Below, piece by piece: positions 1,778 through 18,246 of a DNA stretch of 64,000 nt. Made by a program: the position numbers and the translations under genes. Origin of the DNA: a virus; IMG/VR virus record IMGVR_UViG_3300032213_001813, positions 124,001 to 188,000 of that record; one strand, written 5' to 3'. Every line of letters starts with the position of its first letter. Position 1 is the first letter of the stretch. Under the pieces are notes generated by a model that was given only the letters and a program-made list of their open reading frames with translations, did not search any database and had not been told where the DNA came from.

Positions 1778-1793
1778 AAAAAGATTAAGAAAC

Positions 1794-1826
1794 GTTTGGA
1801 TTTATCAAAAAGATTTCGTATCTTTG
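1794..1826 (+). promoter_or_regulatory. Class A promoter before the tRNA-Met gene
   Basis: TTTGGATTT in the -33 region (1795-1803) and TATCTTTG at 1819-1826 as the -7 box. Spacing fits Bacteroidota sigma-A-type promoters. It drives the tRNA that starts at 1863. Confidence 0.65.
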
Positions 1827-1862
1827 TAAACGATAAAGAAAAACGTTTCTTTTTTTATACAT

Positions 1863-1934
1863 CGCGGGGAGGTTGTTGGTCACCCACCGGTCTCATAAGC
1901 CAGGTTTACGGCAGTTCGATTCTGTCCCCCGTTA
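1863..1934 (+). tRNA. tRNA-Met(CAU), initiator-like
   Basis: Cloverleaf with anticodon loop CTCATAA. The acceptor CGCGGGG faces CCCCGTT, leaving position 1 unpaired (C against T), as in bacterial initiator tRNAs, which have an unpaired 1-72. T-arm GGCAG/CTGTC with loop TTCGATT. No encoded CCA. The anticodon stem has one mismatch and lacks three consecutive G-C pairs, so initiator identity is likely but not certain. Confidence 0.7.
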
Positions 1935-1967
1935 CTAAAAAATATTTTGAAAATAATTTACAAAATA

Positions 1968-1999
1968 TTAGGAAATACGAAAAAAGTTTCGTATCTTTG
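1968..1999 (+). promoter_or_regulatory. Class A promoter for a small RNA
   Basis: TTAGGAAAT at 1968-1976 and TATCTTTG at 1992-1999. No open reading frame follows; the transcript would start near 2006 and enter the small structured stretch at 2006-2105. Confidence 0.7.
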
Positions 2000-2005
2000 A
2001 AAAAC

Positions 2006-2105
2006 AAATTAGGAAATGGTTGAAGCCAACATCTAATAAAACCGAATGTGTGAAGTCCAACCATAAGTGGTAAACTATAAAGCCGGATACCATTTACTAA
2101 TTTGA
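2006..2105 (+). ncRNA. Candidate small RNA between two promoters
   Basis: About 100 bases without a coding frame, bounded by two near-identical class A promoters. ATGGTTG near 2016 can pair with CAACCAT near 2058. AGTGGTA near 2067 can pair with TACCATT near 2089. A local GTTG/CAAC hairpin competes with the first. No match to a known RNA class recognised. It could also be a leader of the long RNA downstream. Confidence 0.45.
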
Positions 2106-2124
2106 AAAAATAATTAAGAAATTA

Positions 2125-2156
2125 TTAGGAAATACGAAAAAAGTTTCGTATCTTTG
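2125..2156 (+). promoter_or_regulatory. Class A promoter for the long structured RNA
   Basis: TTAGGAAAT at 2125-2133 and TATCTTTG at 2149-2156, almost identical over 30 bases to the promoter at 1968-1999. Transcription would start near 2163, at the 5' edge of the long RNA. Confidence 0.72.
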
Positions 2157-2162
2157 ATAAAC

Positions 2163-3037
2163 AATAAAGAAAAAGTTCTTTGAAAGATATTAGAGTACAT
2201 AGTGAACTTGTTTCACATAGTATTCAATCGGCCGCTTATGGTCGTGAAATAAACTACGAAAGTAGGATAAAGTGAATCATTTGGTTAAGTGGTTTGCGGC
2301 TTTGTAAGGAGCTTGAGTAGGCAAGTGGAATATCATTTCACCTTTAGTATTGAGGGTAACACTGTAAAGAGGGTGGTGAGATGACTGGGCTAATGTAGAT
2401 AGTTCGGTTGAGGTAGGGATATCAATAAGAATAATCCATAGAGTTATTGTAAGAAGTAAGGACTTAATCTCTCCTTATCATTGCGTGATTCAATATTAGA
2501 GTAATCTTAAAACCGAAAGGTAAGATAAAGTACAGGTGGTGCTGTTATTATCCTTACTCTTCACCTACCAAGGTAGGAGTTATGAAGATGACTTGAAATA
2601 TGGTGTTAGGGATAACACATCGAGTAGTTCAGTATTTCCTCGTTCAAAAGGTGGGGAAGCTGATGGGTGGACCACTACTTGAATAAATCTACAACCAAAA
2701 CTCAATTTGCTATATGGTGCAAACTTAAACAAAAAGAGCAAAAGTGTCCATCAGTTACGAACGAAAGGTGCGTACATAGTAGGGAGTTGTTCCTTGCCAC
2801 AAACATCCGCAAGATGAATGTGATTCTTTTGAAAAATTTCTAACACCGCAAGTGTGAGTTTGCTCGGCAGAGTAGAAGAAACGGATTAGGGAGAGAGTAG
2901 TTTGTAACTTTATGAGTGGTTGGCATTACTAACCCGCATTGAATCGGTACTACTCAAAAGGTAGTGGAAACGAAACTAAAACATAAGGTTTCTAAAGCTG
3001 GTTCGCTTACGTGAGTATTCTCATCCGTAACCACTAA
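2163..3037 (+). ncRNA. Giant structured RNA (GOLLD/ROOL-like candidate)
   Basis: About 875 bases with no credible coding frame, own promoter, G+C content higher than the flanks, and ending directly at a tRNA array. Many compact hairpins are visible: CTAC-GAAA-GTAG (2254-2265), CCTAC-CAAG-GTAGG (2564-2577), GTGTTA-GGGA-TAACAC (2603-2618), CATC-CGCAA-GATG (2804-2816) and ACAC-CGCAA-GTGT (2843-2855). An outer AGTAGT/ACTACT helix encloses a TCAG/CTGA helix near 2623-2682. AGTGGTT at 2288-2294 can pair with AACCACT at 3029-3035, linking the 5' region to the 3' end. GNRA-type loops, length, and position beside phage tRNAs are the known hallmarks of GOLLD and ROOL RNAs. I cannot align it to either family by eye, so it may be one of them or a new class. 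Confidence 0.72.
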
Positions 3038-3039
3038 AA

Positions 3040-3109
3040 GCGGTATTAGTGTAAAGGTAGCACGCTCTGCATCCGTAGAGAAGTTGGGGTTCGATTCCTT
3101 AGTTCCGCT
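3040..3109 (+). tRNA. tRNA-Gly-like, aberrant anticodon loop
   Basis: Acceptor GCGGTAT/GTTCCGC with discriminator T (glycine-like). D-arm GTGT/GCAC and T-arm TGGGG/CCTTA with loop TTCGATT. The anticodon arm CTCT...AGAG encloses GCATCCGT, which holds TCC but without the usual T33. One base seems missing on the 3' side of the stem. No encoded CCA. It may be a specialised or decaying glycine tRNA; the decoding role is uncertain. Confidence 0.6.
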
Positions 3110-3114
3110 CACAA

Positions 3115-3185
3115 GCGGTGGAAGTGTTACGGTAGCACATTGGCCGTCCAGGTCGAAGGAGGTGGTTCAATTCCATCCCACCGCT
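3115..3185 (+). tRNA. tRNA-Gly(UCC)-like, G at position 33
   Basis: Perfect acceptor GCGGTGG/CCACCGC with discriminator T, and T-arm GGTGG/CCATC with loop TTCAATT. The D-arm is nearly the same as in the preceding gene. The anticodon stem TTGGC/GTCGA encloses CGTCCAG, giving anticodon TCC but G instead of the near-universal T at 33. No CCA encoded. Five bases separate it from the previous glycine-like gene, so the two may be a diverged duplication. Confidence 0.65.
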
Positions 3186-3316
3186 CTACAACGTGAGTTG
3201 TTTTCATATCTTGATTTTTATTACATTGTGAAGTGGGAGATTTCGGTCTCCCATAACACTAAAGATGTGGAATAACCGAAAAAACAAATAGTACATACTT
3301 ATATAAAAGAAATAGA
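3186..3316 (+). other. Intergenic hairpins after the first tRNAs
   Basis: Holds ACAAC-GTGA-GTTGT followed by TTTT (3188-3205), a weak terminator or processing hairpin, and GGGAGA-TTTCGG-TCTCCC (3235-3252). The 11-mer GTGGAATAACC occurs here and again near 3443. No convincing gene. Confidence 0.4.
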
Positions 3317-3451
3317 ATGAAAACTCTTAACCTACATACACCCAATTATCAACCGGCAACGAATATGTTGTGGGCTGGGATTAGTGTGTGTGATTTTAAT
3401 TCGAAGAGAATTGAACTAAAGTTAAGGGTACAAAATGTAGAAGTGGAATAA
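3317..3451 (+). CDS. Possible 44-residue peptide
   Basis: ATG at 3317 opens a 44-codon frame (starts MKTLNLHTPN, ends RVQNVEVE) between the glycine-like tRNAs and a strong terminator, on the strand used by everything nearby. An A-rich stretch precedes the start, as in other genes here. No family recognised, and composition is not decisive; it may be part of a non-coding spacer. Confidence 0.35.
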   Translation: MKTLNLHTPNYQPATNMLWAGISVCDFNSKRIELKLRVQNVEVE

Positions 3452-3476
3452 CCAAACTACATATAAAGGTTAAAAG

Positions 3477-3519
3477 ACCCCTAACTGAAATCAAAATCGG
3501 TTAGGGGTTTTTTGTTTTT
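3477..3519 (+). terminator. Rho-independent terminator within the tRNA array
   Basis: ACCCCTAAC and GTTAGGGGT form a perfect 9-bp stem around a 14-base loop, followed by TTTTTGTTTTT. It separates the long RNA/glycine-like unit from the main tRNA array. Confidence 0.85.
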
Positions 3520-3521
3520 AA

Positions 3522-3593
3522 GGGGTGGTAGCTCAGAGGCAGAGCAGATGACTGTTAATCATCAGGTCGAGATATCGTAATTCTCCCTCCCCT
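3522..3593 (+). tRNA. tRNA-Asn(GUU)
   Basis: Acceptor GGGGTGG/CCTCCCC (one T-T mismatch), D-arm GCTC/GAGC, anticodon arm GATGA-CTGTTAA-TCATC. The T-loop is unusual (ATCGTAA instead of TTCGANT). No CCA encoded. Confidence 0.8.
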
Positions 3594-3624
3594 CAATATA
3601 GTTCTTTGACATCGTGGTAAAAAT

Positions 3625-3697
3625 AGTGGGTTAGCTCAATTGGCAGAGCGCCGTCTTTACATGGCGGATGTTGGGGGTTCAAATCCCTCACTCACTA
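3625..3697 (+). tRNA. tRNA-Val(UAC)
   Basis: Acceptor AGTGGGT/ACTCACT, discriminator A. Anticodon region CGCCG-TCTTTACA-TGGCG has an 8-base loop containing TAC. T-arm GGGGG-TTCAAAT-CCCTC. No CCA encoded. The extra loop base makes the anticodon slightly ambiguous. Confidence 0.75.
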
Positions 3698-3704
3698 CAT
3701 TAAA

Positions 3705-3779
3705 TGCTCTTGTAGACAAAAGGTAAAGTCATCGGTCTTAGACACCGAGTTTTATAGGTTCGAATCCTATCAGGAGTAC
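3705..3779 (+). tRNA. tRNA with UAG anticodon (Leu?), short variable loop
   Basis: Acceptor TGCTCTT/AGGAGTA, anticodon arm TCGGT-CTTAGAC-ACCGA with anticodon TAG, T-arm ATAGG-TTCGAAT-CCTAT. Leucine tRNAs normally carry a long variable arm; here it is about 4-5 bases, which is atypical. No CCA encoded. Confidence 0.75.
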
Positions 3780-3816
3780 AGGTAGTTCCCGATGCTACAT
3801 ATCAAAATCGGAATAG

Positions 3817-3890
3817 GGAGTGGTGGCAGATGAGGTTCATTGCGTTGGACTGAAAATCCAGAGGAACAGGTTCGATACCTGTCCGCTCCA
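3817..3890 (+). tRNA. tRNA-Phe(GAA)
   Basis: Acceptor GGAGTGG/CCGCTCC, discriminator A, anticodon arm TTGGA-CTGAAAA-TCCAG, T-arm ACAGG-TTCGATA-CCTGT. No CCA encoded. Confidence 0.87.
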
Positions 3891-3895
3891 CTAAC

Positions 3896-3968
3896 GAACT
3901 CGTAGCTCAATTGGTAGAGCACTACACTTTTAATGTAGGGGTTTTGGGTTCGATTCCCAACGGGTTCA
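3896..3968 (+). tRNA. tRNA-Lys(UUU)
   Basis: Acceptor GAACTCG/CGGGTTC, discriminator A, D-arm GCTC/GAGC, anticodon arm CTACA-CTTTTAA-TGTAG, T-arm TTGGG-TTCGATT-CCCAA. No CCA encoded. Confidence 0.92.
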
Positions 3969-3974
3969 CAATAT

Positions 3975-4050
3975 AGGGTGGTATATCAATGGTTAGATTA
4001 CTTGCTTTGGGAGCAAGAGGCTGTGGGTTCGAGTCCCGCTCACCCTACCA
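3975..4050 (+). tRNA. tRNA-Pro(UGG)
   Basis: Acceptor AGGGTGG/TCACCCT, anticodon arm CTTGC-TTTGGGA-GCAAG, T-arm with loop TTCGAGT. Encodes its own 3' CCA, unlike most neighbours in this block. Confidence 0.9.
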
Positions 4051-4053
4051 CAT

Positions 4054-4127
4054 AGGAATATAGCTCAGCTGGTTAGAGCGTTAGTCTGATACACTAAATG
4101 TCTGTGGTTCGAATCCACATATTCCTA
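4054..4127 (+). tRNA. tRNA-Ile(GAU)
   Basis: Acceptor AGGAATA/TATTCCT, anticodon arm TTAGT-CTGATAC-ACTAA, T-arm TGTGG-TTCGAAT-CCACA. No CCA encoded. Confidence 0.92.
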
Positions 4128-4148
4128 CAATACGATTTAGTATTATCC

Positions 4149-4219
4149 GCATCCATAGTGAAATGGTATCATGCCGCTCTCCAAAAGCGTTGTTCTGGGT
4201 TCGAATCCTAGTGGGTGTG
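4149..4219 (+). tRNA. tRNA-Trp(CCA)
   Basis: Acceptor GCATCCA/TGGGTGT, discriminator G, anticodon loop CTCCAAA within CCGCT/AGCGT (one mismatch), T-arm CTGGG-TTCGAAT-CCTAG. No CCA tail encoded. Confidence 0.85.
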
Positions 4220-4225
4220 CAAAAT

Positions 4226-4297
4226 AGTTCCGTAGTTTAACGGATAAAATGATTGGCTACGAACCAATTGATGGGAGTTCGATTCTCTCCGGAACTA
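4226..4297 (+). tRNA. tRNA-Arg(ACG)
   Basis: Acceptor AGTTCCG/CGGAACT, anticodon arm ATTGG-CTACGAA-CCAAT, T-loop TTCGATT. No CCA encoded. An A34 anticodon needs deamination to inosine by the host enzyme to read all CGN codons. Confidence 0.9.
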
Positions 4298-4301
4298 CAT
4301 A

Positions 4302-4374
4302 AGGCGAGTTGTTAGAGTGGTTATATGGAGCTCTGCAAAAGCTCTCACACAGGTTCGAATCCTGTACTCGCCTC
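4302..4374 (+). tRNA. tRNA-Cys(GCA)
   Basis: Acceptor AGGCGAG/CTCGCCT, anticodon arm GAGCT-CTGCAAA-AGCTC, T-arm ACAGG-TTCGAAT-CCTGT. No CCA encoded; abuts the next tRNA. Confidence 0.9.
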
Positions 4375-4449
4375 GGTGATTGTCGTCTAATGGTAGGACA
4401 AATGTTTGTGGTGCATTCAATAAGGGTTCGATTCCCTTCAATCACACCA
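4375..4449 (+). tRNA. tRNA-His(GUG)
   Basis: Extra G at -1 (4375) before acceptor GTGATTG/CAATCAC, as expected for histidine tRNA, though the discriminator is A rather than C. Anticodon arm AATGT-TTGTGGT-GCATT. Encodes CCA. Confidence 0.88.
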
Positions 4450-4453
4450 ATCA

Positions 4454-4525
4454 TTGCGTGGCTTAGTGGAAAAGAGCTATCTCTCATAAGGAAAGCCAAA
4501 TGAGTTCGAACCTCGTACACGCAAC
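4454..4525 (+). tRNA. tRNA with CAU anticodon (Met or Ile2)
   Basis: Acceptor TTGCGTG/CACGCAA, loop CTCATAA, T-arm ATGAG-TTCGAAC-CTCGT. The anticodon stem has a mismatch. CAU may be elongator Met or the lysidine-modified Ile tRNA reading AUA; sequence alone does not decide. No CCA. Confidence 0.78.
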
Positions 4526-4553
4526 TTTAAAAATAATTTAAAAATATTTTACA

Positions 4554-4590
4554 AAAGGCTTGTTTATATCAAATTTTTTGCGTACCTTTA
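4554..4590 (+). promoter_or_regulatory. Class B promoter and leader
   Basis: AAAAGGCTTG at the -33 position and TACCTTTA at 4583-4590. The leader that follows has GTTG-AGAGAC-CAAC hairpin and the CTCCCCTCCCTCC tract typical of this class, ending just before the ATG at 4634. Confidence 0.72.
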
Positions 4591-4633
4591 ATATGTGGTT
4601 GAGAGACCAACTCCCCTCCCTCCACATTAAGAT

Positions 4634-4915
4634 ATGATGATTAACGAATTGAATTTAACTGAATTGGAAACCAAAACATTAACTACCTTTATTGGTGGTT
4701 TGTACGCTGAACCGGGTTTCTCTGATGTGGATGTGAACGATTTGAGTTCAGAGTTAGGAATCTCTACAAAAGTGTTGAGAGGTGCATTGGGTTCATTAGT
4801 TAAGAAAGGTATTGTGTTTGTTGATGAGAGTGATAGTGGTTATGATATCATCTACTTAAACAAACCATATTGGAGTTTGGTAAACGAAAGTTGGGCTGAA
4901 GAAGCTAATTATTAA
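4634..4915 (+). CDS. Small winged-helix-like protein
   Basis: 93 residues. The middle (DVNDLSSELGISTKVLRGAL, then GSLVKKGIVFVDES and a beta pair) reads as a helix-turn-helix with wing, like MarR/small transcription factors. The second helix pair would contact DNA. It is headed by a strong class B promoter and lies between two tRNA groups, so it may regulate phage genes. Fold assignment is by pattern only. Two adjacent ATG codons at 4634 and 4637 could each start it. Confidence 0.7.
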   Translation: MMINELNLTELETKTLTTFIGGLYAEPGFSDVDVNDLSSELGISTKVLRGALGSLVKKGIVFVDESDSGYDIIYLNKPYWSLVNESWAEEANY

Positions 4916-4934
4916 TCCTTAAAATCTGAAAGAT

Positions 4935-5177
4935 ATGAAACACAGAGCAAAGTATGAGAAATTGTTAAAGAATTCTAACGGTCAATATCGTTATCAATTC
5001 AATTGGGTAAGTGGTGGGTTCAATGATGTTTGGGCTAAGAACCTTAAAGAGTTCAAATTAGAACTTAATCGCCAGTTCGGTAATTCCAACTTAGATGTGG
5101 ATTACAACACACTTCACAAAGCAACCGAAAGTGGTGCTAGGAGTTGGGATAAGGCAGGTAATATGTTGTGTTGGTAA
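4935..5177 (+). CDS. Hypothetical protein
   Basis: 80 residues, basic and aromatic-rich (MKHRAKYEKLLKNSNGQYRY start, ends DKAGNMLCW). No family recognised. It follows the winged-helix gene by 19 bases, probably in the same transcript, with an A/G-rich stretch before its ATG. Confidence 0.65.
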   Translation: MKHRAKYEKLLKNSNGQYRYQFNWVSGGFNDVWAKNLKEFKLELNRQFGNSNLDVDYNTLHKATESGARSWDKAGNMLCW

Positions 5178-5218
5178 AAGAACCACACAAAATTTGAAAT
5201 AGTGATAGTTATTTAAAA

Positions 5219-5343
5219 GCGGGTGACCAGCTAATAATATGGTAATGTGGGAACTCCTATAAGGAGATAACAAAAATAAAGGCTGGCCATTGTAATTAGT
5301 TACGATGAAGTGGTAAATGGAGGTTCGAATCCTCCCATCCGCA
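5219..5343 (+). tRNA. tRNA-like RNA with an internal insertion
   Basis: Perfect tRNA ends: acceptor GCGGGTG (5219-5225) pairs with CATCCGC (5336-5342), and the T-arm is GGAGG-TTCGAAT-CCTCC. About 90 bases lie between acceptor and T-arm instead of about 45. CCAGC/GCTGG encloses an ACTCC/GGAGA hairpin, then CATTGTAA-TTAG-TTACGATG forms an 8-bp hairpin. No standard 7-base anticodon loop is visible. It may be a tRNA with an insertion or a tRNA-mimicking RNA. Confidence 0.6.
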
Positions 5344-5348
5344 CAACT

Positions 5349-5420
5349 GCTCCCATCGACAAGCGGTTAAGTCACGTCCCTTTCACGGATGAGTCACGGG
5401 TTCGAATCCCGTTGGGAGTA
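5349..5420 (+). tRNA. tRNA-Glu(UUC)
   Basis: Acceptor GCTCCCA/TGGGAGT, anticodon arm CGTCC-CTTTCAC-GGATG, T-arm ACGGG-TTCGAAT-CCCGT. No CCA encoded. Confidence 0.92.
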
Positions 5421-5435
5421 CAAAAAGTAAAACAA

Positions 5436-5508
5436 GCTTCCGTAGCTCATTTGGTAGAGCAGCTGACTTGTAATCAGCAGGTGGTTGGTTCGAGCCCGAC
5501 CGGAAGCT
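5436..5508 (+). tRNA. tRNA-Thr(UGU)
   Basis: Acceptor GCTTCCG/CGGAAGC, discriminator T, anticodon arm GCTGA-CTTGTAA-TCAGC, T-arm with loop TTCGAGC. No CCA encoded. Confidence 0.92.
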
Positions 5509-5526
5509 CAATTAGTAAAAATAAAA

Positions 5527-5558
5527 TTAGGATATGTGAAAAGTTTTCCGTATCTTTG
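5527..5558 (+). promoter_or_regulatory. Class A promoter
   Basis: TTAGGATAT at 5527-5535 and TATCTTTG at 5551-5558; the ATG at 5576 lies about 11 bases after the predicted start site. Confidence 0.75.
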
Positions 5559-5575
5559 TAAAAACAAAATAAGTT

Positions 5576-5941
5576 ATGAAAGAAATAGGTTTAGCAATTA
5601 CAATGTTCTTCAATAGTTTGTTGGGTGGTGTAGACCCTCAATTATCAAACGATAGAGGAACAATCGAATCCATAAAGAAGGAAATCAAAATACTTTATAG
5701 AGATATCGAATGGGAAACAGTCACTACATCGGATTATGCAACCAGATGGGTAAAGATTAAGAAAATCAATGATAGAATTGATAATCTTAAAAATCAAATC
5801 AAAACAATCGAAGTTCGTGCCAAGCTCAAAGAAAAATGGGCAGCGGAAGATTCGTTAGAGATTATCAAAAAGTATCCGCCAATTGAATTGAAATTAGAGA
5901 AACCATCTGAAAGTAAAGATGATGACTCTATGAAGATTTAA
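5576..5941 (+). CDS. Hypothetical coiled-coil protein
   Basis: 121 residues. The first 15 residues are hydrophobic, then residues about 28-95 form a long charged helix with heptad-like Ile/Leu spacing (IESIKKEIKILYRDIEWE, later IKKINDRIDNLKNQIKTIEV), so a coiled coil is likely. The tail is Pro/Lys/Asp-rich. No family recognised. Transcribed from its own class A promoter, probably together with the tRNA-Arg that follows. Confidence 0.75.
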   Translation: MKEIGLAITMFFNSLLGGVDPQLSNDRGTIESIKKEIKILYRDIEWETVTTSDYATRWVKIKKINDRIDNLKNQIKTIEVRAKLKEKWAAEDSLEIIKKYPPIELKLEKPSESKDDDSMKI

Positions 5942-5976
5942 TTTATATAAAAGATTTATAAGTAGAAATAAATAAC

Positions 5977-6050
5977 GGCTCCGTAGCTCAGTTGGATAGA
6001 GCAATTCTCTTCTAAAGAATAGGTCTTTGGTTCGAGCCCAAACGGAGTCA
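5977..6050 (+). tRNA. tRNA-Arg(UCU)
   Basis: Acceptor GGCTCCG/CGGAGTC, anticodon arm ATTCT-CTTCTAA-AGAAT, T-loop TTCGAGC. No CCA. UCU reads AGA/AGG, the codons this AT-rich genome favours for Arg. Confidence 0.92.
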
Positions 6051-6064
6051 CTAAATAAAACTAT

Positions 6065-6418
6065 ATGATAAAAAATACCATAGTATGTATCCTTTTGAGT
6101 TTCGGAGTAAACGCAACGGATATAGTAACAGTGACAACTTATTCTGCAACAACATCGCAGACAGATAGTACACCTCGATTAACGGCAAGTGGGTTTCGAA
6201 TTAAGAAAGGAACAACCCGAATTGTGGCAGTTAGTAGAGATTTGAAGAGAAAGTACAAATTTGGAACTAAAGTACGAATTACAGGCATCGGTAAACACAA
6301 TGGAGTTTATGTAGTAAGAGATGTAATGAATGCTAGGTTCACAAAACGTGTGGATATTCTTATTAGTGGTAAGCAGAAACACACAAAGTTTAAGAAAGCC
6401 AAACTTACAAGAGTGTAG
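6065..6418 (+). CDS. Exported 3D/RlpA-type beta-barrel protein
   Basis: 117 residues with an N-terminal signal peptide. The body fits the 3D domain/double-psi beta-barrel seen in peptidoglycan lytic enzymes (MltA/RlpA relatives): TTYSATTSQTDSTPRLTASG, then VAVSRDL, then FGTKVRITGIGKHNGVYVV and RDVMNARFTKRVDIL with its conserved Asp residues. It would act on, or bind, cell-wall glycan in the periplasm. A role in lysis or wall remodelling is inference. It sits between tRNA genes. Confidence 0.78.
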   Translation: MIKNTIVCILLSFGVNATDIVTVTTYSATTSQTDSTPRLTASGFRIKKGTTRIVAVSRDLKRKYKFGTKVRITGIGKHNGVYVVRDVMNARFTKRVDILISGKQKHTKFKKAKLTRV

Positions 6419-6426
6419 GTTTGATT

Positions 6427-6503
6427 GGGGGATTAGCTCAGCTGGCTAGAGCACCTGCCTTGCACGCAGGGGGTCAACGGTTCGAATCCGTTATTCTCCA
6501 CCA
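6427..6503 (+). tRNA. tRNA-Ala(UGC)
   Basis: Acceptor GGGGGAT/ATTCTCC, anticodon arm CCTGC-CTTGCAC-GCAGG, T-loop TTCGAAT, encoded CCA. Confidence 0.92.
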
Positions 6504-6513
6504 AAAAAAATAT

Positions 6514-6621
6514 GCCGGAGTGGCGGAAAGAATGGGAAGTACAACCATTAGACGTACCTGATTCGAAGTGGTGCAGTAACCGAAAAGGACTGCGTGAGAG
6601 TAACCAATCTCTCCTCCGGTA
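6514..6621 (+). tRNA. Class II tRNA-like gene (Leu/Ser type), derived
   Basis: Acceptor GCCGGAG/CTCCGGT, a GTGGCGGAA start like bacterial leucine tRNAs, and a long variable arm (GCAGT...ACTGC). About 20 extra bases lie in the D-loop region, and GTAC...GTAC forms an alternative hairpin. The T-loop is TAACCAAT rather than TTCGANT, and no normal anticodon loop can be fixed. It ends ACCCA, close to but not an exact CCA. Function as a decoding tRNA is doubtful. Confidence 0.5.
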
Positions 6622-6649
6622 CCCATATTATCGTTGAAAGAAACGATAT

Positions 6650-6726
6650 GGACTTGTAGCTCACTCGGTTAGAGCAGTTGACTCATAATCAAAAGGTAGT
6701 AGGTTCGATTCCTACCTGGTCCACCA
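6650..6726 (+). tRNA. tRNA-Met(CAU), elongator-like
   Basis: Acceptor GGACTTG/CTGGTCC (one mismatch), loop CTCATAA in GTTGA/TCAAA, T-arm GTAGG-TTCGATT-CCTAC, encoded CCA. A hairpin ATCGTT/AACGAT precedes it (6630-6647). Confidence 0.85.
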
Positions 6727-6728
6727 TT

Positions 6729-6804
6729 GCGAATGTAGCTCAGCTGGTAGAGCACAACCTTGCCAAGGTTGGGGTCGTGAGTTCGAACCTCATCATTCGC
6801 TCCA
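6729..6804 (+). tRNA. tRNA-Gly(GCC)
   Basis: Acceptor GCGAATG/CATTCGC, anticodon arm CAACC-TTGCCAA-GGTTG, discriminator T, encoded CCA. Confidence 0.93.
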
Positions 6805-6806
6805 TT

Positions 6807-6881
6807 GCGAGTATAGCACAACGGTTAGTGCTCCAGCCTTCCAAGCTGGAGATGTGAGTTCGATTCTCACTACTCGCTCCA
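6807..6881 (+). tRNA. tRNA-Gly(UCC)
   Basis: Acceptor GCGAGTA/TACTCGC, anticodon arm CCAGC-CTTCCAA-GCTGG, discriminator T, encoded CCA. A fully canonical glycine tRNA, unlike the two at 3040-3185. Confidence 0.93.
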
Positions 6882-6884
6882 ACT

Positions 6885-6967
6885 GGGGGTATCGCATAGC
6901 GGCAATTGCGGAAGACTGTAAATCTTTTCCTTCGGGTTCGGTGGTTCGAGTCCATCTGCCCCCACCA
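6885..6967 (+). tRNA. tRNA-Tyr(GUA)
   Basis: Acceptor GGGGGTA/TGCCCCC, anticodon arm GAAGA-CTGTAAA-TCTTT, long variable arm with a TTCG hairpin, T-loop TTCGAGT, encoded CCA. Confidence 0.92.
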
Positions 6968-6982
6968 ACTAAAGTATAAGTT

Positions 6983-7549
6983 ATGGCAAATCATATGAGT
7001 ACCTCACTTACGATTGGGAATTTGGACCAACCATCGTATGACAAATTGAAAGAAATCTTTAACGATGGTACTAATCAGTACTATACCAATGTTGAACACA
7101 TCATTAAGCAAATGTATGGTGATGTGGATTTCAGCAAGTTAGATTGGTGGTATGATAACATTGGTTCTAAATGGTTGGAAGTCGAATCAGCCGTTACTGA
7201 AGACTTTGAATCAGAAGTCCAAATCTATATGACATCAGCTTGGTGTGTTCCAACTCAATTTTTAAAAAAACTTTCCCAAATTTTAACAGAAATAAATAAA
7301 GAAATAGTTATCTATGGGACATACGAAGATGAATCATTAGACCCTATCGGAGCATTCGTATATGGTGATGATTATGATGATATGGAAGATTTGGATATTG
7401 AAATTGACTTTGATAAGTATTGGGGTGATGATGATTTAGAGGCCGAAGAATATCGATATGGGATACAAGATGCATTAATAGAACATAAAGAGGCAATCTA
7501 TCAGGCATATTTAGAAGTAGTAGAAGAAAGAAAAGCAGAAAAGGAGTAA
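6983..7549 (+). CDS. YubB/DUF1281-like acidic protein
   Basis: 188 residues. The N-terminal two thirds (SLTIGN, NIGSKW, TSAWCVPTQFLKKLS, then an acidic GAFVYGDD stretch) fits the ferredoxin-like 'YubB' proteins common on plasmids and phages, which typically read W-G-T-K-W, T-A-W-x-P-P and F-x-G. Function in that family is not established; anti-restriction has been suggested for relatives. Residues 125-160 are very acidic. The start is ATG 6983, though an in-frame ATG 12 bases on is possible. It lies between the tyrosine and serine tRNAs. Confidence 0.7.
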   Translation: MANHMSTSLTIGNLDQPSYDKLKEIFNDGTNQYYTNVEHIIKQMYGDVDFSKLDWWYDNIGSKWLEVESAVTEDFESEVQIYMTSAWCVPTQFLKKLSQILTEINKEIVIYGTYEDESLDPIGAFVYGDDYDDMEDLDIEIDFDKYWGDDDLEAEEYRYGIQDALIEHKEAIYQAYLEVVEERKAEKE

Positions 7550-7554
7550 AATAA

Positions 7555-7642
7555 GGAGAGTTGTCAGAGCGGTCGAACGAGGTAGTCTTGAAAACTATTG
7601 ACTGTAACAGGTCCGGGGGTTCGAATCCCTCACTCTCCTCCA
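7555..7642 (+). tRNA. tRNA-Ser(UGA)
   Basis: Acceptor GGAGAGT/ACTCTCC, anticodon arm GTAGT-CTTGAAA-ACTAT, long variable arm, T-loop TTCGAAT, encoded CCA. Confidence 0.92.
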
Positions 7643-7652
7643 TTAAAAACAT

Positions 7653-8231
7653 ATGAAGATAATTGAAAACTTTTTAACGGAAAAAGAACATCAAAACTTA
7701 ACTAAATTGGTTAAGAGTAATGTATTCGATTGGTACTATATGGATTGGACAAGTGAGGCTGATTTTTATGGTGGTAAACTTACAACCGAACGTCCTCAAT
7801 TTGTACATACCTTTTTCTATCATGGTACGACTATGAAGTATATGGAAGCCTTAGAGCCATTCAAACATGCGTTAGCAAGAAATGATATTGAGCCGGGTAA
7901 ATTACTTCATATAAAAGCAAATATGTTATTGAGAGATGAAAACTATCCACCAAATCATTTCCATCCACCGCATGCGGATGTAAATAAAGATAATTCATTT
8001 CTATCTCTATTGTATTATATAAATGATTCGGATGGGGATACATTCTTTTTTAATAAAACGCATGATGGTATGCCGGATTTTAGAAATAGAGTAGATGAGT
8101 TAAAGATAGTTCGTAGAGTAACACCAAAAGCTAATATGGCTGTATTATTTGATTCAGCTATATTACACGCATCATCTTCACCAATAGAAACGGATAGGAG
8201 ATTGGTGATAAATGGTGTATTTGAATTGTAA
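7653..8231 (+). CDS. 2OG-Fe(II) oxygenase, prolyl-hydroxylase-like
   Basis: 192 residues. HAD at 107-109 (within HPPHADV) supplies the first iron ligands and His172 (LHASSSP) the distal one. Arg183 (DRRLVING) would bind 2-oxoglutarate. The layout matches small phage 2OG oxygenases of T4-like viruses. Substrate unknown. It lies directly between two serine tRNAs, 10 bases after one and 3 bases before the next, so it is likely co-transcribed with tRNAs. Confidence 0.83.
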   Translation: MKIIENFLTEKEHQNLTKLVKSNVFDWYYMDWTSEADFYGGKLTTERPQFVHTFFYHGTTMKYMEALEPFKHALARNDIEPGKLLHIKANMLLRDENYPPNHFHPPHADVNKDNSFLSLLYYINDSDGDTFFFNKTHDGMPDFRNRVDELKIVRRVTPKANMAVLFDSAILHASSSPIETDRRLVINGVFEL

Positions 8232-8234
8232 AAT

Positions 8235-8409
8235 TGCGGTATGGTGAAATATGATTAGCACGCGTTGCTAATCCGGCAGACACACCCTCCTGTCTCGGGG
8301 GCGGGGATAAAGAAATAGGTTAGTAATATGGGGTAGACCACCAAGCCGGCCGGCGGATGTTACTAACTGAATCTCCCTTTGGATGGTTCGACTCCTCCTA
8401 CCGCAGCCA
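8235..8409 (+). tRNA. tRNA-Ser(GCU)-like with large structured insertion
   Basis: Perfect acceptor TGCGGTA (8235-8241)/TACCGCA (8399-8405) with encoded CCA after a G, and loop TTGCTAA with anticodon GCT. The gene is about 175 bases because roughly 85 bases are inserted after the anticodon arm. The insert folds on its own: AGACA/TGTCT hairpin, then GTTAGTAA pairing with TTACTAAC around GCCGGCCGGC. The anticodon stem is weak. No group I intron core could be recognised. An intact Ser(GCU) tRNA follows 5 bases later. Confidence 0.6.
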
Positions 8410-8413
8410 TTAT

Positions 8414-8505
8414 AGAGAGTTGGGTGAGTGGCTGATACCAGCAGTTTGCTAAACTGCCGATGGGATTGAACCTATCCACCGGTTCGAATCCGGTACTCTC
8501 TACCA
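8414..8505 (+). tRNA. tRNA-Ser(GCU)
   Basis: Acceptor AGAGAGT/ACTCTCT, anticodon arm GCAGT-TTGCTAA-ACTGC, long variable arm, T-arm CCGG-TTCGAAT-CCGG, encoded CCA. Confidence 0.92.
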
Positions 8506-9377: not shown

Positions 9378-10877
9378 ATGAAAATTGTTATAGTAGGTGG
9401 TGGAACTGCGGGTTGGGTATCAGCTGCAATGTTTATGAAGTATAGAACGGATTTTGAGGTTACACTCATTGAAAGTTCTAATATACCCATTATAGGTGCG
9501 GGTGAGGGTTCGGTTGAATCATTCACTAAAATTATTCACGACAATTGGCCTAATGGTATTGAAGTAGATGAGTTAGATTTTCTTCGTAAAACCAAAGCAA
9601 CACCAAAATTAGCTATCAACCTTGTAAATTGGAAAGGTGATGGTAAGCAAACGTATTCACCCATCAGAACATCCCTAACAGCAGACCAGGGTATCGATTC
9701 TCTATTCTTATATTCAATACACAAATATGGGGATTCTAATATGGCATCTCCTAATAATTGGATATTGGATGCAAACCTATCTCCATATCATTTCAAATTC
9801 AAACCAGTAGATAAAGCATTGGTTGGATATTCATATCATTTCGATGGGTTTGAAGTTGGACAGTACTTTAAAAAACATTCCATCATATTGGGTGCTAAAC
9901 TGATAACTGCTAACTTAGAAGATATTCAATTCAATGAAAACGATTATGTGAAAAGTATAACTCTATCAAACGGACAGGTAGTTGAAGGTGATTTGTTTAT
10001 AGATTGTACGGGATTTGCAAGAGCATTGATTGGTAAAACTAAAAGTAAATGGATTAGTTACAAAGAACAACTACCAACTAATGCAGCTGTAACATTCTCA
10101 ACTGGTGTTAGTTCTAAACATATTCGATTTGAAACCCTAGCTAAAACTATGAACAATGGTTGGTTATGGAAGATACCTTTACAAAATAGACATGGTAATG
10201 GTTATGTATATTCGGATGATTTTCAATCCTATGAAGATAGTGTGGAAGAGTTGGAAAGAAATGGTTTGATTCAGGGAGCACAAGTTCGTAACATAAAGTT
10301 TGAAGCAGGTAGATATGATGAGATGTGGTATAAAAATATAGTAGCAGTTGGGTTGAGTTCACATTTTTTAGAACCATTACAAGCTACCAACATACACATT
10401 ACAGTAACTGCAATATCAAATCTATTCCTACACTATTGTAAAACCAAAGAATCTATATATTCAGAAGCAAATCGGAAACGATATAACAAACATATGTGTG
10501 GTATTGTTGATGAGTATAAGGATTTATTACAAATGCATTATTTAGCTGGAAGAGATGATACTGCATTTTGGGCAACTGCAAAAAATGAATTAAAGATAAG
10601 TGATTTCAATAAAGAAATTATAGAGATATCAAAGACACGATTGTTAAACAAATATGATGTAGAACGTTCGCCTGGTGGAGTTCCTTGGCCCGTTTGGTCT
10701 CACATATTGGATATGGCTGGATTGTTCGATAGGGATATGATTGAGAAAGAATTGCGTTCTATTAATACATATGATGATATTAAGGATGTATTTAACAAAA
10801 TGCAAAATACATTTAATACAAGAATAAAAAATGAATTGTTAAACAATGAACAATTTATGAAATATATAAAGTTATGA
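9378..10877 (+). CDS. Flavin-dependent tryptophan halogenase 1
   Basis: 499 residues, full length for PrnA/RebH-type enzymes that chlorinate or brominate using FADH2, O2 and halide. The FAD motif VGGGTAGW is at 6-13 and a second glycine motif GAGEGS at 40-45. The catalytic Lys is expected at Lys77 in ATPKLAINL. The WxWxIP signature is at 262-267 (GWLWKIPLQNR). EPLQAT holds Glu332, the residue thought to position tryptophan. All signature residues are present, so activity is plausible. Substrate (free tryptophan, peptide or other) is unknown. It overlaps the second halogenase by 4 bases (ATGA). Confidence 0.92.
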   Translation: MKIVIVGGGTAGWVSAAMFMKYRTDFEVTLIESSNIPIIGAGEGSVESFTKIIHDNWPNGIEVDELDFLRKTKATPKLAINLVNWKGDGKQTYSPIRTSLTADQGIDSLFLYSIHKYGDSNMASPNNWILDANLSPYHFKFKPVDKALVGYSYHFDGFEVGQYFKKHSIILGAKLITANLEDIQFNENDYVKSITLSNGQVVEGDLFIDCTGFARALIGKTKSKWISYKEQLPTNAAVTFSTGVSSKHIRFETLAKTMNNGWLWKIPLQNRHGNGYVYSDDFQSYEDSVEELERNGLIQGAQVRNIKFEAGRYDEMWYKNIVAVGLSSHFLEPLQATNIHITVTAISNLFLHYCKTKESIYSEANRKRYNKHMCGIVDEYKDLLQMHYLAGRDDTAFWATAKNELKISDFNKEIIEISKTRLLNKYDVERSPGGVPWPVWSHILDMAGLFDRDMIEKELRSINTYDDIKDVFNKMQNTFNTRIKNELLNNEQFMKYIKL

Positions 10878-12400
10878 AAATAGTAATTGTAGGTGGTGGT
10901 ACTGCTGGGTGGATGGCTGCTTGTTACGCAGCAAGATTTAATCATTCTGGTGATAATATAAATGATATAACGGTAATTGAATCATCCAAAATACCAATCA
11001 TTGGAGCAGGTGAAGGTTCGACTGGTACATTTACTCAAATAGTTAATTCTCATTTTAAACAATGGGGAATGAATGAACCTGAATTTTTAAATAAAACCAA
11101 ATCAACATTAAAATTAGGAATCCGATTTAAAGATTGGAATGGTATAGGTACTGAATTCCTAAGTCCTGTGCAGCCATCCGAAAGTTCTTTAAATAGTATA
11201 GATACACATTTATTGACATCACATATATTAGGCGATTATGCAGATGCCTCACCATCTGGATATCTTATGAACAAAAATTTATCATCTTATATTTCAACGG
11301 ATGGTAGAAGTATATTAGGGCATTCTTATCATTTCGATGCACATGCGGTGGGTAAATATTGGAAAGAATATGCACTTAAAAATGGTGTTAAAGTAGTAGA
11401 TACTGAAGTGGTTTCCTTAAACAAAAATACACAAAGTGGTGAGTTGGATAGTATAGAAACTACCAACGGAACTATCGAAGGTGATTTGTGGATTGATTGT
11501 AGTGGATTTGCTAGAGTGTTAATCAATCCGATGGGTGGTGGTTGGAAAAGTTATTCAGAATATCTACCAACAAATAATGCAATGCCATTCATCCAACAAT
11601 TCGAACCAAAGGAAGTTCCTAAGTTGGAAACACTATCACAAGCTCTACCAAACGGATGGATGTGGAAAATACCAACACAGGAAAGATATGGTTGTGGGTA
11701 TGTTTATTCGGATATGTTTACTACTGAAGAGAAAGCATTAAGTGAATTAAGGAAATCGGTAGGTAGAGATGTAGAACCCATCCGTAATATCAAATTTGAT
11801 TGCGGTAGATTAGAAAACATTTGGGTAAAGAATGTAGTTGCCGTAGGATTATCTGCTGGGTTCGTTGAACCATTAGAAGCAACCTCAATACATGCTACCA
11901 TTGTACAATTAGATTATCTATCAACTATCACATTAAATTTTGCAACACCAAAGAAAAGTGTGGTATTTGAAAATAATATAAAACAACACAATACTTTTTT
12001 AGGTAAATTGTTTGATGATATTAAAGATTTAATTCAGTTACACTATATGAGTGATAGAGAAGATACTGAATTTTGGAAGTATTGTAAATATGATTTGAAA
12101 CGAACAGACGCGGTAAAACATATATTGGAAGTATCAAAACACAGATGTCCATCTATGTTAGACTTTGATTTTTATCATGGTGCTGGAAATTGGGGTGTTT
12201 GGTGTTGGACAATGATGGGAATGGGACATATTACCAAAGAGATATCACACCATACATTGGATGGATATAGGCATACAACTCAAACTATCAAAGATATATT
12301 TGAATCCGTAAATCGTAGGAATAGGTTAAATGGAATCAAAGTTATGAAAAATTCGGAGTTCTTCAATGCATTAAAAAAAGGTGAAATTCGTAAAAAATAA
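10874..12400 (+). CDS. Flavin-dependent tryptophan halogenase 2
   Basis: 508 residues. FAD motif at the N-terminus (VGGGTAGW), GAGEGS, catalytic Lys80 in STLKLGIRFKDW, the WMWKIP signature and a FVEPLEATSIH stretch. It is clearly paralogous to halogenase 1 but well diverged. The ATGA overlap implies translational coupling. The C-terminal 100 residues, which cover the active site in this family, differ from its partner, suggesting distinct substrates. Confidence 0.92.
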   Translation: MKIVIVGGGTAGWMAACYAARFNHSGDNINDITVIESSKIPIIGAGEGSTGTFTQIVNSHFKQWGMNEPEFLNKTKSTLKLGIRFKDWNGIGTEFLSPVQPSESSLNSIDTHLLTSHILGDYADASPSGYLMNKNLSSYISTDGRSILGHSYHFDAHAVGKYWKEYALKNGVKVVDTEVVSLNKNTQSGELDSIETTNGTIEGDLWIDCSGFARVLINPMGGGWKSYSEYLPTNNAMPFIQQFEPKEVPKLETLSQALPNGWMWKIPTQERYGCGYVYSDMFTTEEKALSELRKSVGRDVEPIRNIKFDCGRLENIWVKNVVAVGLSAGFVEPLEATSIHATIVQLDYLSTITLNFATPKKSVVFENNIKQHNTFLGKLFDDIKDLIQLHYMSDREDTEFWKYCKYDLKRTDAVKHILEVSKHRCPSMLDFDFYHGAGNWGVWCWTMMGMGHITKEISHHTLDGYRHTTQTIKDIFESVNRRNRLNGIKVMKNSEFFNALKKGEIRKK

Positions 12401-16534: not shown

Positions 16535-16669
16535 ATGGAAATACTAAAGAGAGTTATAAAAAAGGTTGAGTTGTGGTGGGATATATACTTTGTATATTTT
16601 TTGTACAACGATAAGAAGTTAGATAGATACTATACCTACATGCGTAAAAAGTGGGGAAATGATATATGA
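16535..16669 (+). CDS. Hypothetical 44-residue protein
   Basis: Begins 2 bases after the previous stop and overlaps the third halogenase by ATGA. Aromatic and basic (KKVELWWDIYFVYFLYNDKK). Perhaps a small membrane-associated peptide coupled to the halogenase. Too short to assign. Confidence 0.6.
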   Translation: MEILKRVIKKVELWWDIYFVYFLYNDKKLDRYYTYMRKKWGNDI

Positions 16670-18243
16670 AAAAAAAGTTTGTTATAATTGGTGGTGGAAC
16701 TGCGGGGTGGTTAAGCGCTTTGTATGTTAATAAATTGTATGGAACTGATGCTGATATCACTTTAATAGAAAGTGATGAAATTGGTATATTAGGTGCAGGT
16801 GAAGGTACTGTTCCATTGTTCGTTTATATCCTAAAATATTTGGATATTGATGTTTATCACTTTATGATTGAGTGTAACGCTACTCATAAAATTGGTATAT
16901 CTTTTGAAAATTGGAATGGTGATGGTGAAAAGTACATGCATGATTTTCAAAAATCATACTTTAATGAAACCAAAGATGAGGCAACCAAAATTCAGGGAGA
17001 ATATATGGGGTATTTAATTGATAAAGGATTAAACCCATTTGATTATAGTGTATCTAAACAATTAGCATATTCAAACAAATCACCTATTTTAAAAAATGGA
17101 GATGAACCTTGTGGATACTCATTTCACTTTGATGCCCATTTAGTTGCACAATACTTTCGTAAATTAGCAGAAGAGAGAGGTGTTAAGAGAGTTGAAGGTA
17201 AGACAAAAGATTTTGTTGTAAACCAAAATGGAAATCTAACATCGGTATTGATGGAGACTGGTTATAGATACCAAGCTGATTTTTGGTTTGATTGTAGTGG
17301 ATTCAAACGATTAATAGTAGGTCAGTTATATAAAACACCTTGGATATCGTATAAGGATAAACTTACAGTAAATTCTGCTATTCCGTTCTTCTTACCACAA
17401 TCCGAAACTGAACTTAAACCATACACCCGTGCCATTGCTATGAAGTATGGTTGGATGTGGCAGATACCTTTACAAAATAGATGGGGTTGTGGTTATATAT
17501 TCGATGATAACTACATAGATTACGAAAAAGCAAAGCAAGAGGTAGAAGAACATTTAGGACATTCAATAGAAATAAATAAACTTATTAAGTTTAGAGCTGG
17601 GAGATTCTTAAACACTTGGGTGAATAATGTTATAGCTATTGGTTTAAGTAGTGGATTTACTGAACCATTAGAAGCAACATCTATTATGGTTGCTATTGCT
17701 GGATTAAAGGATTTATCTAAAACGGTATTGGATAACTATAATGAGAGAGTAATAAAGGAGTATAACGATTTTATGGGTTCTTACAACGATGAGATTGTAG
17801 ATTTCTTGCAATTCCATTATATAACTAAAAGAACCGATACACCATTTTGGAAATATTACACAGAGAAATCACCACTTTCGGATAGTTTGAGAAATATTGT
17901 TGAGAGTTATTTCAATGGAAAGTTTTTTGAAATTGATGAAAAGGATAAAATAGTATTTGCCGAAAGTAATTATATGGAAGTTGGATATGGTTTGGAGTTT
18001 TTTGATTCAGATTACTTTAAAAAAATATATCAACAATATGAAGATAAGGGTGTTGTTGAAAAAATACATCAGCACAATTCTCAAAGTCTTAAATATACAT
18101 ATGATAACTCAATGCCAGCGTTAGCATTCTTAAAGTTAGTAAAAATTGCATATGATGATAATCAATTGGATGACTTTAAAAAACTACTAAAGAAAGATGA
18201 ACCAAAAGAAAAAGAGAAATCAAGTTCTTGGAAGTTGTGGTAA
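16666..18243 (+). CDS. Flavin-dependent tryptophan halogenase 3
   Basis: 525 residues. IGGGTAGWL FAD motif, GAGEGT, catalytic Lys75 in ATHKIGISFENW, WMWQIPLQNRWGCGYIF, and GFTEPLEATSI. It has a C-terminal extension ending in a Lys/Ser/Trp-rich tail. More similar to halogenase 4 than to 1 and 2 (shared YTRAIAMKYGWMWQ and HYITKRTDTPFW-type segments), so the two pairs arose by separate duplications. Confidence 0.92.
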   Translation: MKKKFVIIGGGTAGWLSALYVNKLYGTDADITLIESDEIGILGAGEGTVPLFVYILKYLDIDVYHFMIECNATHKIGISFENWNGDGEKYMHDFQKSYFNETKDEATKIQGEYMGYLIDKGLNPFDYSVSKQLAYSNKSPILKNGDEPCGYSFHFDAHLVAQYFRKLAEERGVKRVEGKTKDFVVNQNGNLTSVLMETGYRYQADFWFDCSGFKRLIVGQLYKTPWISYKDKLTVNSAIPFFLPQSETELKPYTRAIAMKYGWMWQIPLQNRWGCGYIFDDNYIDYEKAKQEVEEHLGHSIEINKLIKFRAGRFLNTWVNNVIAIGLSSGFTEPLEATSIMVAIAGLKDLSKTVLDNYNERVIKEYNDFMGSYNDEIVDFLQFHYITKRTDTPFWKYYTEKSPLSDSLRNIVESYFNGKFFEIDEKDKIVFAESNYMEVGYGLEFFDSDYFKKIYQQYEDKGVVEKIHQHNSQSLKYTYDNSMPALAFLKLVKIAYDDNQLDDFKKLLKKDEPKEKEKSSSWKLW

Positions 18244-18246
18244 TTT

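What the first reader, a model, noticed from the sequence alone, without database searches (positions are those of the whole stretch)
2163..3037. Giant structured RNA beside the tRNA array (GOLLD/ROOL-like or new class)
An 875-base stretch has its own strong promoter, no coding frame, higher G+C than its surroundings, several short hairpins with GAAA, GGGA and CGCAA loops, nested helices, and a possible 5'-3' closing helix. It ends exactly where a phage tRNA array begins. Size, ornate structure and tRNA adjacency are the known hallmarks of GOLLD and ROOL RNAs, whose biological role in phages is unresolved.
Basis: partly seen in the sequence, partly recalled or inferred. Interest (0 to 1): 0.92.

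Follow-up and report, generated by a model that had tools for sequence, protein, structure and literature searches.

The report
GOLLD giant RNA beside tRNA genes
The stretch is an intact GOLLD RNA, a known class of giant phage RNA whose solved example builds hollow RNA cages, here in a virus that probably infects Bacteroidota; just upstream lies a small conserved RNA that matches nothing in Rfam.

Summary
Window 2620-3027 is a full-length match to the Rfam GOLLD model (288.7 bits, threshold 150, E=1.8e-81). It is not ROOL and not a new class. Rfam models only the 3' domain. I tested the 5' half (2163-2619) with 66 non-redundant full-length homologues from viral contigs. It carries 28 covarying base pairs under a tree-based null; in a 40-sequence alignment its 19 helices are 94.7% paired, against 36-41% when partners are slid. 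The pair that should form the known inter-subunit kissing bridge L20 x J13/15 is present here and covaries in 65 of 66 homologues, so cage assembly is the best-supported inference, untested here. tRNA adjacency is real in this genome but not a rule: half of the well-flanked homologous loci have no downstream tRNA. Promoter elements point to Bacteroidota hosts. The proposed 5'-3' closing helix has no covariation support. Novelty for the finding is low: a new member of a known class. The more novel item is a neighbour at 2008-2099: a conserved small RNA family with no Rfam match, found before GOLLD and also before uvsX in at least 119 viral contigs.

The parts
2138..2156 (+). promoter element AAAAAGTTTCGTATCTTTG (TAnnTTTG type) of the GOLLD transcript
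   Evidence: exact copy; 3 copies at 1808, 1981 and 2138, expected 0.04 in the window; TAnnTTTG lies upstream of GOLLD in 117 of 124 homologous loci against 28.6% of random windows
2163..2619 (+). GOLLD 5' (cap) domain, outside the Rfam model; 19 conserved helices between 2229 and 2618
   Evidence: 28 covarying pairs at E<=0.1 under a tree-based null; 94.7% of cells paired, covariation score 0.519 against 0.076-0.110 for slid versions
2234..2238 (+). hairpin-loop strand of a 5-bp covarying loop-junction helix (partner 2318-2322)
   Evidence: variable pairs 2235x2321 and 2236x2320 change together (TA/CG; GC/CG/AT/TA/TG); 100% of cells paired in A1
2318..2322 (+). junction strand pairing with 2234-2238
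2620..3027 (+). GOLLD 3' domain, full RF02032 model 1-416
   Evidence: 288.7 bits, E=1.8e-81; 48 further covarying pairs
2667..2672 (+). 5' strand of a pseudoknot helix (partner 2746-2751)
   Evidence: 2668x2750 and 2669x2749 covary at E<0.07; 2670, 2671 and 2672 also pair
2683..2735 (+). variable linker (the part reported to lie disordered inside the env-38 cage); no tRNA in it
   Evidence: poorly alignable stretch between conserved helices; no tRNA inside GOLLD in any of 95 loci
2738..2739 (+). J13/15 side of the predicted intermolecular kissing bridge B7 (G2738-C2810, C2739-G2809)
   Evidence: 2739x2809 is CG 39, GC 23, AT 3 and other 1 of 66; covariation E<0.07; bridge described in PMC12286853
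2808..2812 (+). loop L20 (CGCAA), partner of J13/15
2847..2851 (+). loop L21a (CGCAA), internal GC; predicted self-kissing bridge B8
   Evidence: GC dinucleotide in 52 of 66; CG-type loops (GTCG) in 11, the same switch as reported in PMC12286853
3012..3026 (+). P27 and loop L27; base 3018 covaries with 2969 in J24/26
   Evidence: 2969x3018 is TA 46, AT 19 of 65
3040..3110 (+). tRNA-like gene abutting GOLLD, anticodon loop apparently one base short (ARAGORN tRNA-???)
3471..3514 (+). intrinsic terminator after GOLLD and two tRNAs, before the main tRNA array
   Evidence: 18-pair stem plus T run
2008..2099 (+). neighbour, separate RNA: small conserved RNA with no Rfam match (P1 closing stem, P2 with loop AAUAAAACCG, P3, strand AAAGCCGGA)
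   Evidence: own promoter copy at 1981-1999

Best explanation
It is a GOLLD RNA gene of a large phage that probably infects Bacteroidota. Shown: the full 3' domain model match, a conserved 5' domain, a dedicated promoter-like element, and covarying pairs at the positions of known tertiary and inter-subunit contacts. Inferred: transcription starts near 2160 and runs through GOLLD and two tRNA-like genes to the terminator at 3514; RNase P cutting at the 5' end of the abutting tRNA-like gene (3040) would leave the RNA's 3' end at about 3039. Inferred from the solved env-38 relative: each RNA folds into a 5' cap and a 3' ring domain, and copies join through kissing loops and A-minor contacts into a hollow RNA cage (14-mer in env-38) with the variable linker inside. 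Most likely role, weakly supported: an infection-phase RNA compartment that holds or shields phage or host RNA (tRNAs, ribosomal components).
For: Full-length CM match, 138 bits over threshold. Of 76 viral records fetched only by a 5'-domain motif, 64 carry the GOLLD 3' domain, and the 12 misses all have the motif within 64-591 nt of a contig end, so the two domains form one RNA of about 865 nt. Covariation over the whole length. Pair 2739x2809 at the position of bridge B7 is kept as CG, GC or AT in 65 of 66. L21a carries GC or CG types, as reported for bridge B8. L27 x J24/26 covaries. Cage, linker position and bridges are from PMC12286853. Promoter copies. Terminator.
Against: No experiment on this RNA. 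The 14-mer is known for one relative; stoichiometry could differ. My mapping of bridges B7 and B8 to window bases rests on the paper's text, not its figures or coordinate file. The function of GOLLD is unresolved in the literature. A tRNA abutting GOLLD is not general (12 of 52 loci within 100 nt), so RNase P maturation of the 3' end cannot be universal.
Confidence: 0.8

Rival explanations
1. A new class of giant structured RNA, or a ROOL RNA.
For: Before any model search, size and ornate structure alone would allow it; the 5' half is outside the Rfam model.
Against: Full-length GOLLD match 138 bits above threshold; no ROOL match at E<=1; the 5' half accompanies the GOLLD 3' domain in every contig long enough to tell.
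Confidence: 0.01
2. The stretch is mainly a long structured leader of the tRNA operon: it folds and is made, but acts as a monomer that guides tRNA processing, and no cage forms in this lineage.
For: The tRNA-like gene starts 13 nt after the RNA; similar abutment occurs in a minority of homologous loci.
Against: 26 of 52 well-flanked loci have no downstream tRNA, yet GOLLD is kept; bases at kissing-bridge positions covary, which a monomer would not require.
Confidence: 0.12
3. A decayed GOLLD copy that no longer folds or is not transcribed.
For: No expression data; the abutting tRNA-like gene looks degenerate.
Against: Full-length match; the window sequence keeps the covarying and kissing pairs; a promoter element with exact repeats lies upstream; a second contig carries a 98.9% identical copy.
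Confidence: 0.04

Closest known systems
GOLLD RNA (Rfam RF02032), env-38 cryo-EM structure (PMC12286853)
   Same: Full 3' domain; two-domain layout of about 830-870 nt; variable linker; pair at the position of the L20 x J13/15 kissing bridge; GC/CG L21a loop; L27 x J24/26 contact; tRNA neighbourhood; phage origin.
   Different: Probably Bacteroidota phage host (inferred from promoters); own TAnnTTTG promoter; no tRNA in the linker; multimer not tested; helix numbering of the 5' domain not matched to P1-P12.
ROOL RNA
   Same: Giant, ornate, phage, often near tRNAs; forms a cage (8-mer).
   Different: No sequence or covariance-model match here.
GOLLD of Mycobacterium tRNA clusters (PMC6582537)
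   Same: GOLLD inside a phage-derived tRNA cluster; expressed by Northern blot.
   Different: There a pseudo-tRNA lies inside the GOLLD gene; none here.

Membership tests
GOLLD (RF02032) | score at or above the curated gathering threshold over the 3' domain model | tested here: met
   288.7 bits against 150, model 1-416 of 416; 76 of 90 related records also over the cut-off
GOLLD (RF02032) | separate, less conserved 5' domain joined to the 3' domain | tested here: met
   19 covarying helices in 2229-2618; 5' motif found without the 3' domain only at contig ends
GOLLD (RF02032) | intermolecular kissing L20 x J13/15 (bridge B7), known from covariation | tested here: met
   2739x2809 pairs in 65 of 66, CG/GC/AT; assignment to B7 made from the text of PMC12286853
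GOLLD (RF02032) | L21a loop with self-complementary GC or CG (bridge B8) | tested here: met
   window CGCAA; 52 GC-type and 11 GTCG-type of 66
GOLLD (RF02032) | phage or prophage location near tRNA genes | tested here: met
   IMG/VR virus record, 23 tRNA genes from 3040 to 8505; not universal in relatives
GOLLD (RF02032) | assembly into a closed 14-mer RNA cage | not testable with these tools
   needs purified RNA and cryo-EM or mass photometry
GOLLD (RF02032) | expression rising during phage lysis | not testable with these tools
   no RNA-seq for this uncultured virus
ROOL | match to the Rfam ROOL covariance model | tested here: not met
   no match at gathering threshold over 64 kb or at E<=1 over 1780-3620

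The most novel reading that the evidence does not exclude
The GOLLD itself is ordinary, but the RNA gene about 64 nt before it (2008-2099) belongs to an apparently undescribed conserved RNA family: a closing stem P1, a hairpin P2 with loop AAUAAAACCG, a variable hairpin P3 and invariant strands UUGAAGCC and AAAGCCGGA (with a possible CCG x CGG pseudoknot). It occurs in at least 119 viral contigs, in two main settings: between tmRNA/tRNA-Met and GOLLD in Bacteroidota-type phages, and 22-29 nt before uvsX-type recombinase genes. It may be a processing or self-cleaving RNA, or a 5'-end protector, used both in a non-coding RNA operon and in phage mRNAs.
Probability: 0.55. Interest if true: 0.62.

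Novelty: new member of a known kind. Interest (0 to 1): 0.32.

Why it matters
It adds a well-supported full-length GOLLD group and gives an independent covariation test of the 5' domain, which Rfam leaves out. Conservation at cage-bridge positions in phages far from the solved example supports the view that cage assembly is selected for. For most readers the result is ordinary. The locus may matter more for the neighbouring small RNA family, which has no Rfam match and sits in front of both GOLLD and uvsX genes.

Tried and rejected
Single-sequence folding as proof of structure: z -2.41 only. ROOL: no match. 5'-3' closing helix: no covarying pair. tRNA embedded in the linker, as reported for other GOLLDs: none in 95 loci. 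tRNA adjacency as a universal rule: 26 of 52 loci lack a downstream tRNA. A 5'-domain RNA without GOLLD: all 12 cases sit at contig ends. A longer exact 5' pattern gave no viral match. For the small neighbour RNA: no Rfam family at gathering score in 20 loci, nothing credible at E<=10 on L206; no blastn match in 50,697 phage records, which is weak evidence because the query is short; only one prokaryote genome contig matched; no held paper on an RNA family prints its core. Paper PMC10085705 was read for permuted ribozymes and gave no match.

Full report
IDENTITY. cmscan of the whole window against Rfam 15 gives GOLLD (RF02032) at 2620-3027 on the + strand: 288.7 bits against a curated threshold of 150, E=1.8e-81, model 1-416 complete. 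A permissive scan of 1780-3620 gives no ROOL or other large RNA. The window is bases 124001-188000 of a 188,016-base IMG/VR virus record, which holds one GOLLD copy.

EXTENT. The Rfam model covers only the 3' domain. The 5' domain (2163-2619) is conserved in close viral relatives at 74-99% identity over the full length, and at 65-74% in pieces in two huge-phage genomes, LR756502 and LR745206. A short 5'-domain pattern, AAACNNCGAAAGNNGGATAAAGTG, hits 119 or more viral contigs. Of the 76 listed records reached only by this pattern, 64 carry a GOLLD 3' domain; the 12 others have the pattern within 64-591 nt of a contig end. In the loci measured the pattern lies 364-398 nt before the 3' domain. 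The two halves are therefore one RNA of about 865 nt.

COVARIATION. I aligned 66 non-redundant full-length sequences and built a tree. Scoring was a G-test with average-product correction, with a null in which each column keeps its number of substitutions but places them at random on the tree. 76 pairs reach E<=0.1 over 935 columns, nearly all in canonical helices; 28 of them lie in the 5' domain. An independent count on a 40-sequence alignment gives 94.7% of cells paired (77.6% in shuffles, 36-41% when partners are slid 1-3 columns) and 91 of 121 pairs with double-sided changes. A caution: the consensus structure came from largely the same sequences, so the slide control leans in its favour. 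The tree-based test does not use the structure.

TERTIARY AND INTER-SUBUNIT CONTACTS. Several covarying pairs lie outside the nested structure. 2234-2238 pairs with 2318-2322. 2667-2672 pairs with 2746-2751. 2769-2772 pairs with 2935-2938. 2739 pairs with 2809 (CG 39, GC 23, AT 3, other 1). 2969 pairs with 3018 (TA 46, AT 19). By position, 2739x2809 is the L20 x J13/15 kissing contact, which PMC12286853 shows to be an intermolecular bridge (B7), and 2969x3018 is the L27 x J24/26 contact of the same structure. L21a loops are GC-type (52) or GTCG-type (11), the switch reported there as support for bridge B8. These assignments were made from the text, without the coordinate file.

EXPRESSION UNIT. 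AAAAAGTTTCGTATCTTTG stands at 1808, 1981 and 2138, against 0.04 expected. TAnnTTTG, the Bacteroidota -7 element (established knowledge), is found upstream of GOLLD in 117 of 124 homologous loci against 28.6% of random windows. Hosts are therefore probably Bacteroidota (inference). After GOLLD come a tRNA-like gene at 3040, tRNA-Gly at 3115 and a strong terminator at 3471-3514. RNase P cutting at 3040 would form the 3' end (inference).

tRNA ASSOCIATION. In 52 homologous loci with more than 3 kb downstream, 12 have a tRNA within 100 nt, 20 within 1 kb and 26 none. No locus has a tRNA inside GOLLD. GOLLD in tRNA clusters is known, for example in Mycobacterium (PMC6582537).

MECHANISM. The best-supported model is a self-assembling RNA cage, as solved for env-38 (PMC12286853). 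Identity is shown. The conserved contacts are shown. Assembly is inferred. Cargo and purpose are open; my preferred but weak view is an infection-phase compartment for RNA or ribosomal components.

A SMALL NEIGHBOUR RNA. Between a Met-like tRNA remnant (1861-1935) and GOLLD lies a conserved element at 2008-2099 with its own promoter copy. Pattern searches give 119 or more viral contigs. In the 118 sorted loci it precedes a uvsX-like recombinase in 46, sits with tmRNA, tRNA-Met or GOLLD in 34, and has other settings in 38. P1 (11 pairs, 10 with double-sided changes) and P2 covary; the covariation score is 0.636 against 0.181 in shuffles and 0.083-0.193 when slid. Loop AAUAAAACCG, GUG and AAAGCCGGA are invariant because the search pattern required them. 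UURAAGC was not required and is present in 110 of 110. The CCG x CGG pseudoknot is therefore only a possibility. A covariance model (R1) finds it in 18 of 100 GOLLD-locus sources and once in the window's genome. Rfam has no match. It may still have been described outside Rfam or in papers not held here.

VERDICT. A real, well-preserved GOLLD RNA: known class, new member, modest interest. The neighbour RNA is the lead worth following.

Noticed in passing
window 2008-2099; L206:1520-1600; L262:6239-6322 and others: Small conserved RNA family with no Rfam match: covarying P1 and P2, loop AAUAAAACCG, strands UUGAAGCC and AAAGCCGGA. Found before GOLLD and before uvsX genes in at least 119 viral contigs.
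   Followed up: partly
G000:37460-37839; L002, L004, L005, L006, L009, L011, L012, L226, L236: Phage-encoded tmRNA genes. In several relatives tmRNA, tRNA-Met, the small RNA and GOLLD lie in a row; in the window's own genome the tmRNA is about 89 kb away.
   Followed up: partly
window 3040-3110; L008, L015, L128: The tRNA-like gene abutting GOLLD has an apparently short anticodon loop (ARAGORN tRNA-???); similar odd tRNAs abut GOLLD in some relatives. It may serve as a processing signal rather than in decoding.
   Followed up: partly
window 1861-1935: Met-like tRNA with CAT anticodon and an imperfect anticodon stem, missed by ARAGORN and by the Rfam tRNA model; about 87% identical to sequences near tmRNA in relatives.
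   Followed up: partly
window 9378-12400 and 16666-19758: Four tryptophan-halogenase-like ORFs in two tandem pairs (9378, 10874, 16666, 18247); three confirmed by Pfam PF04820, the fourth (10874) by resemblance only.
   Followed up: partly
window 46583-49843 (-): A 1086-aa TonB-dependent-receptor-like outer membrane protein (OMP_b-brl_4, CarboxypepD_reg, Plug), unusual in a virus record; phage cargo or host DNA not decided.
   Followed up: no
window 3190-3300: Strong hairpin region between tRNA-Gly and the terminator (z -3.30, none of 200 shuffles as good), about 72% identical to stretches in L002, L006, L007, L009, L014 and L069.
   Followed up: no
L023 / G001:21475-21576: Partial second copy of the GOLLD 3' end (model 306-415, 30.8 bits) next to the full copy, which also has a large insertion in a 5'-domain hairpin.
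   Followed up: no
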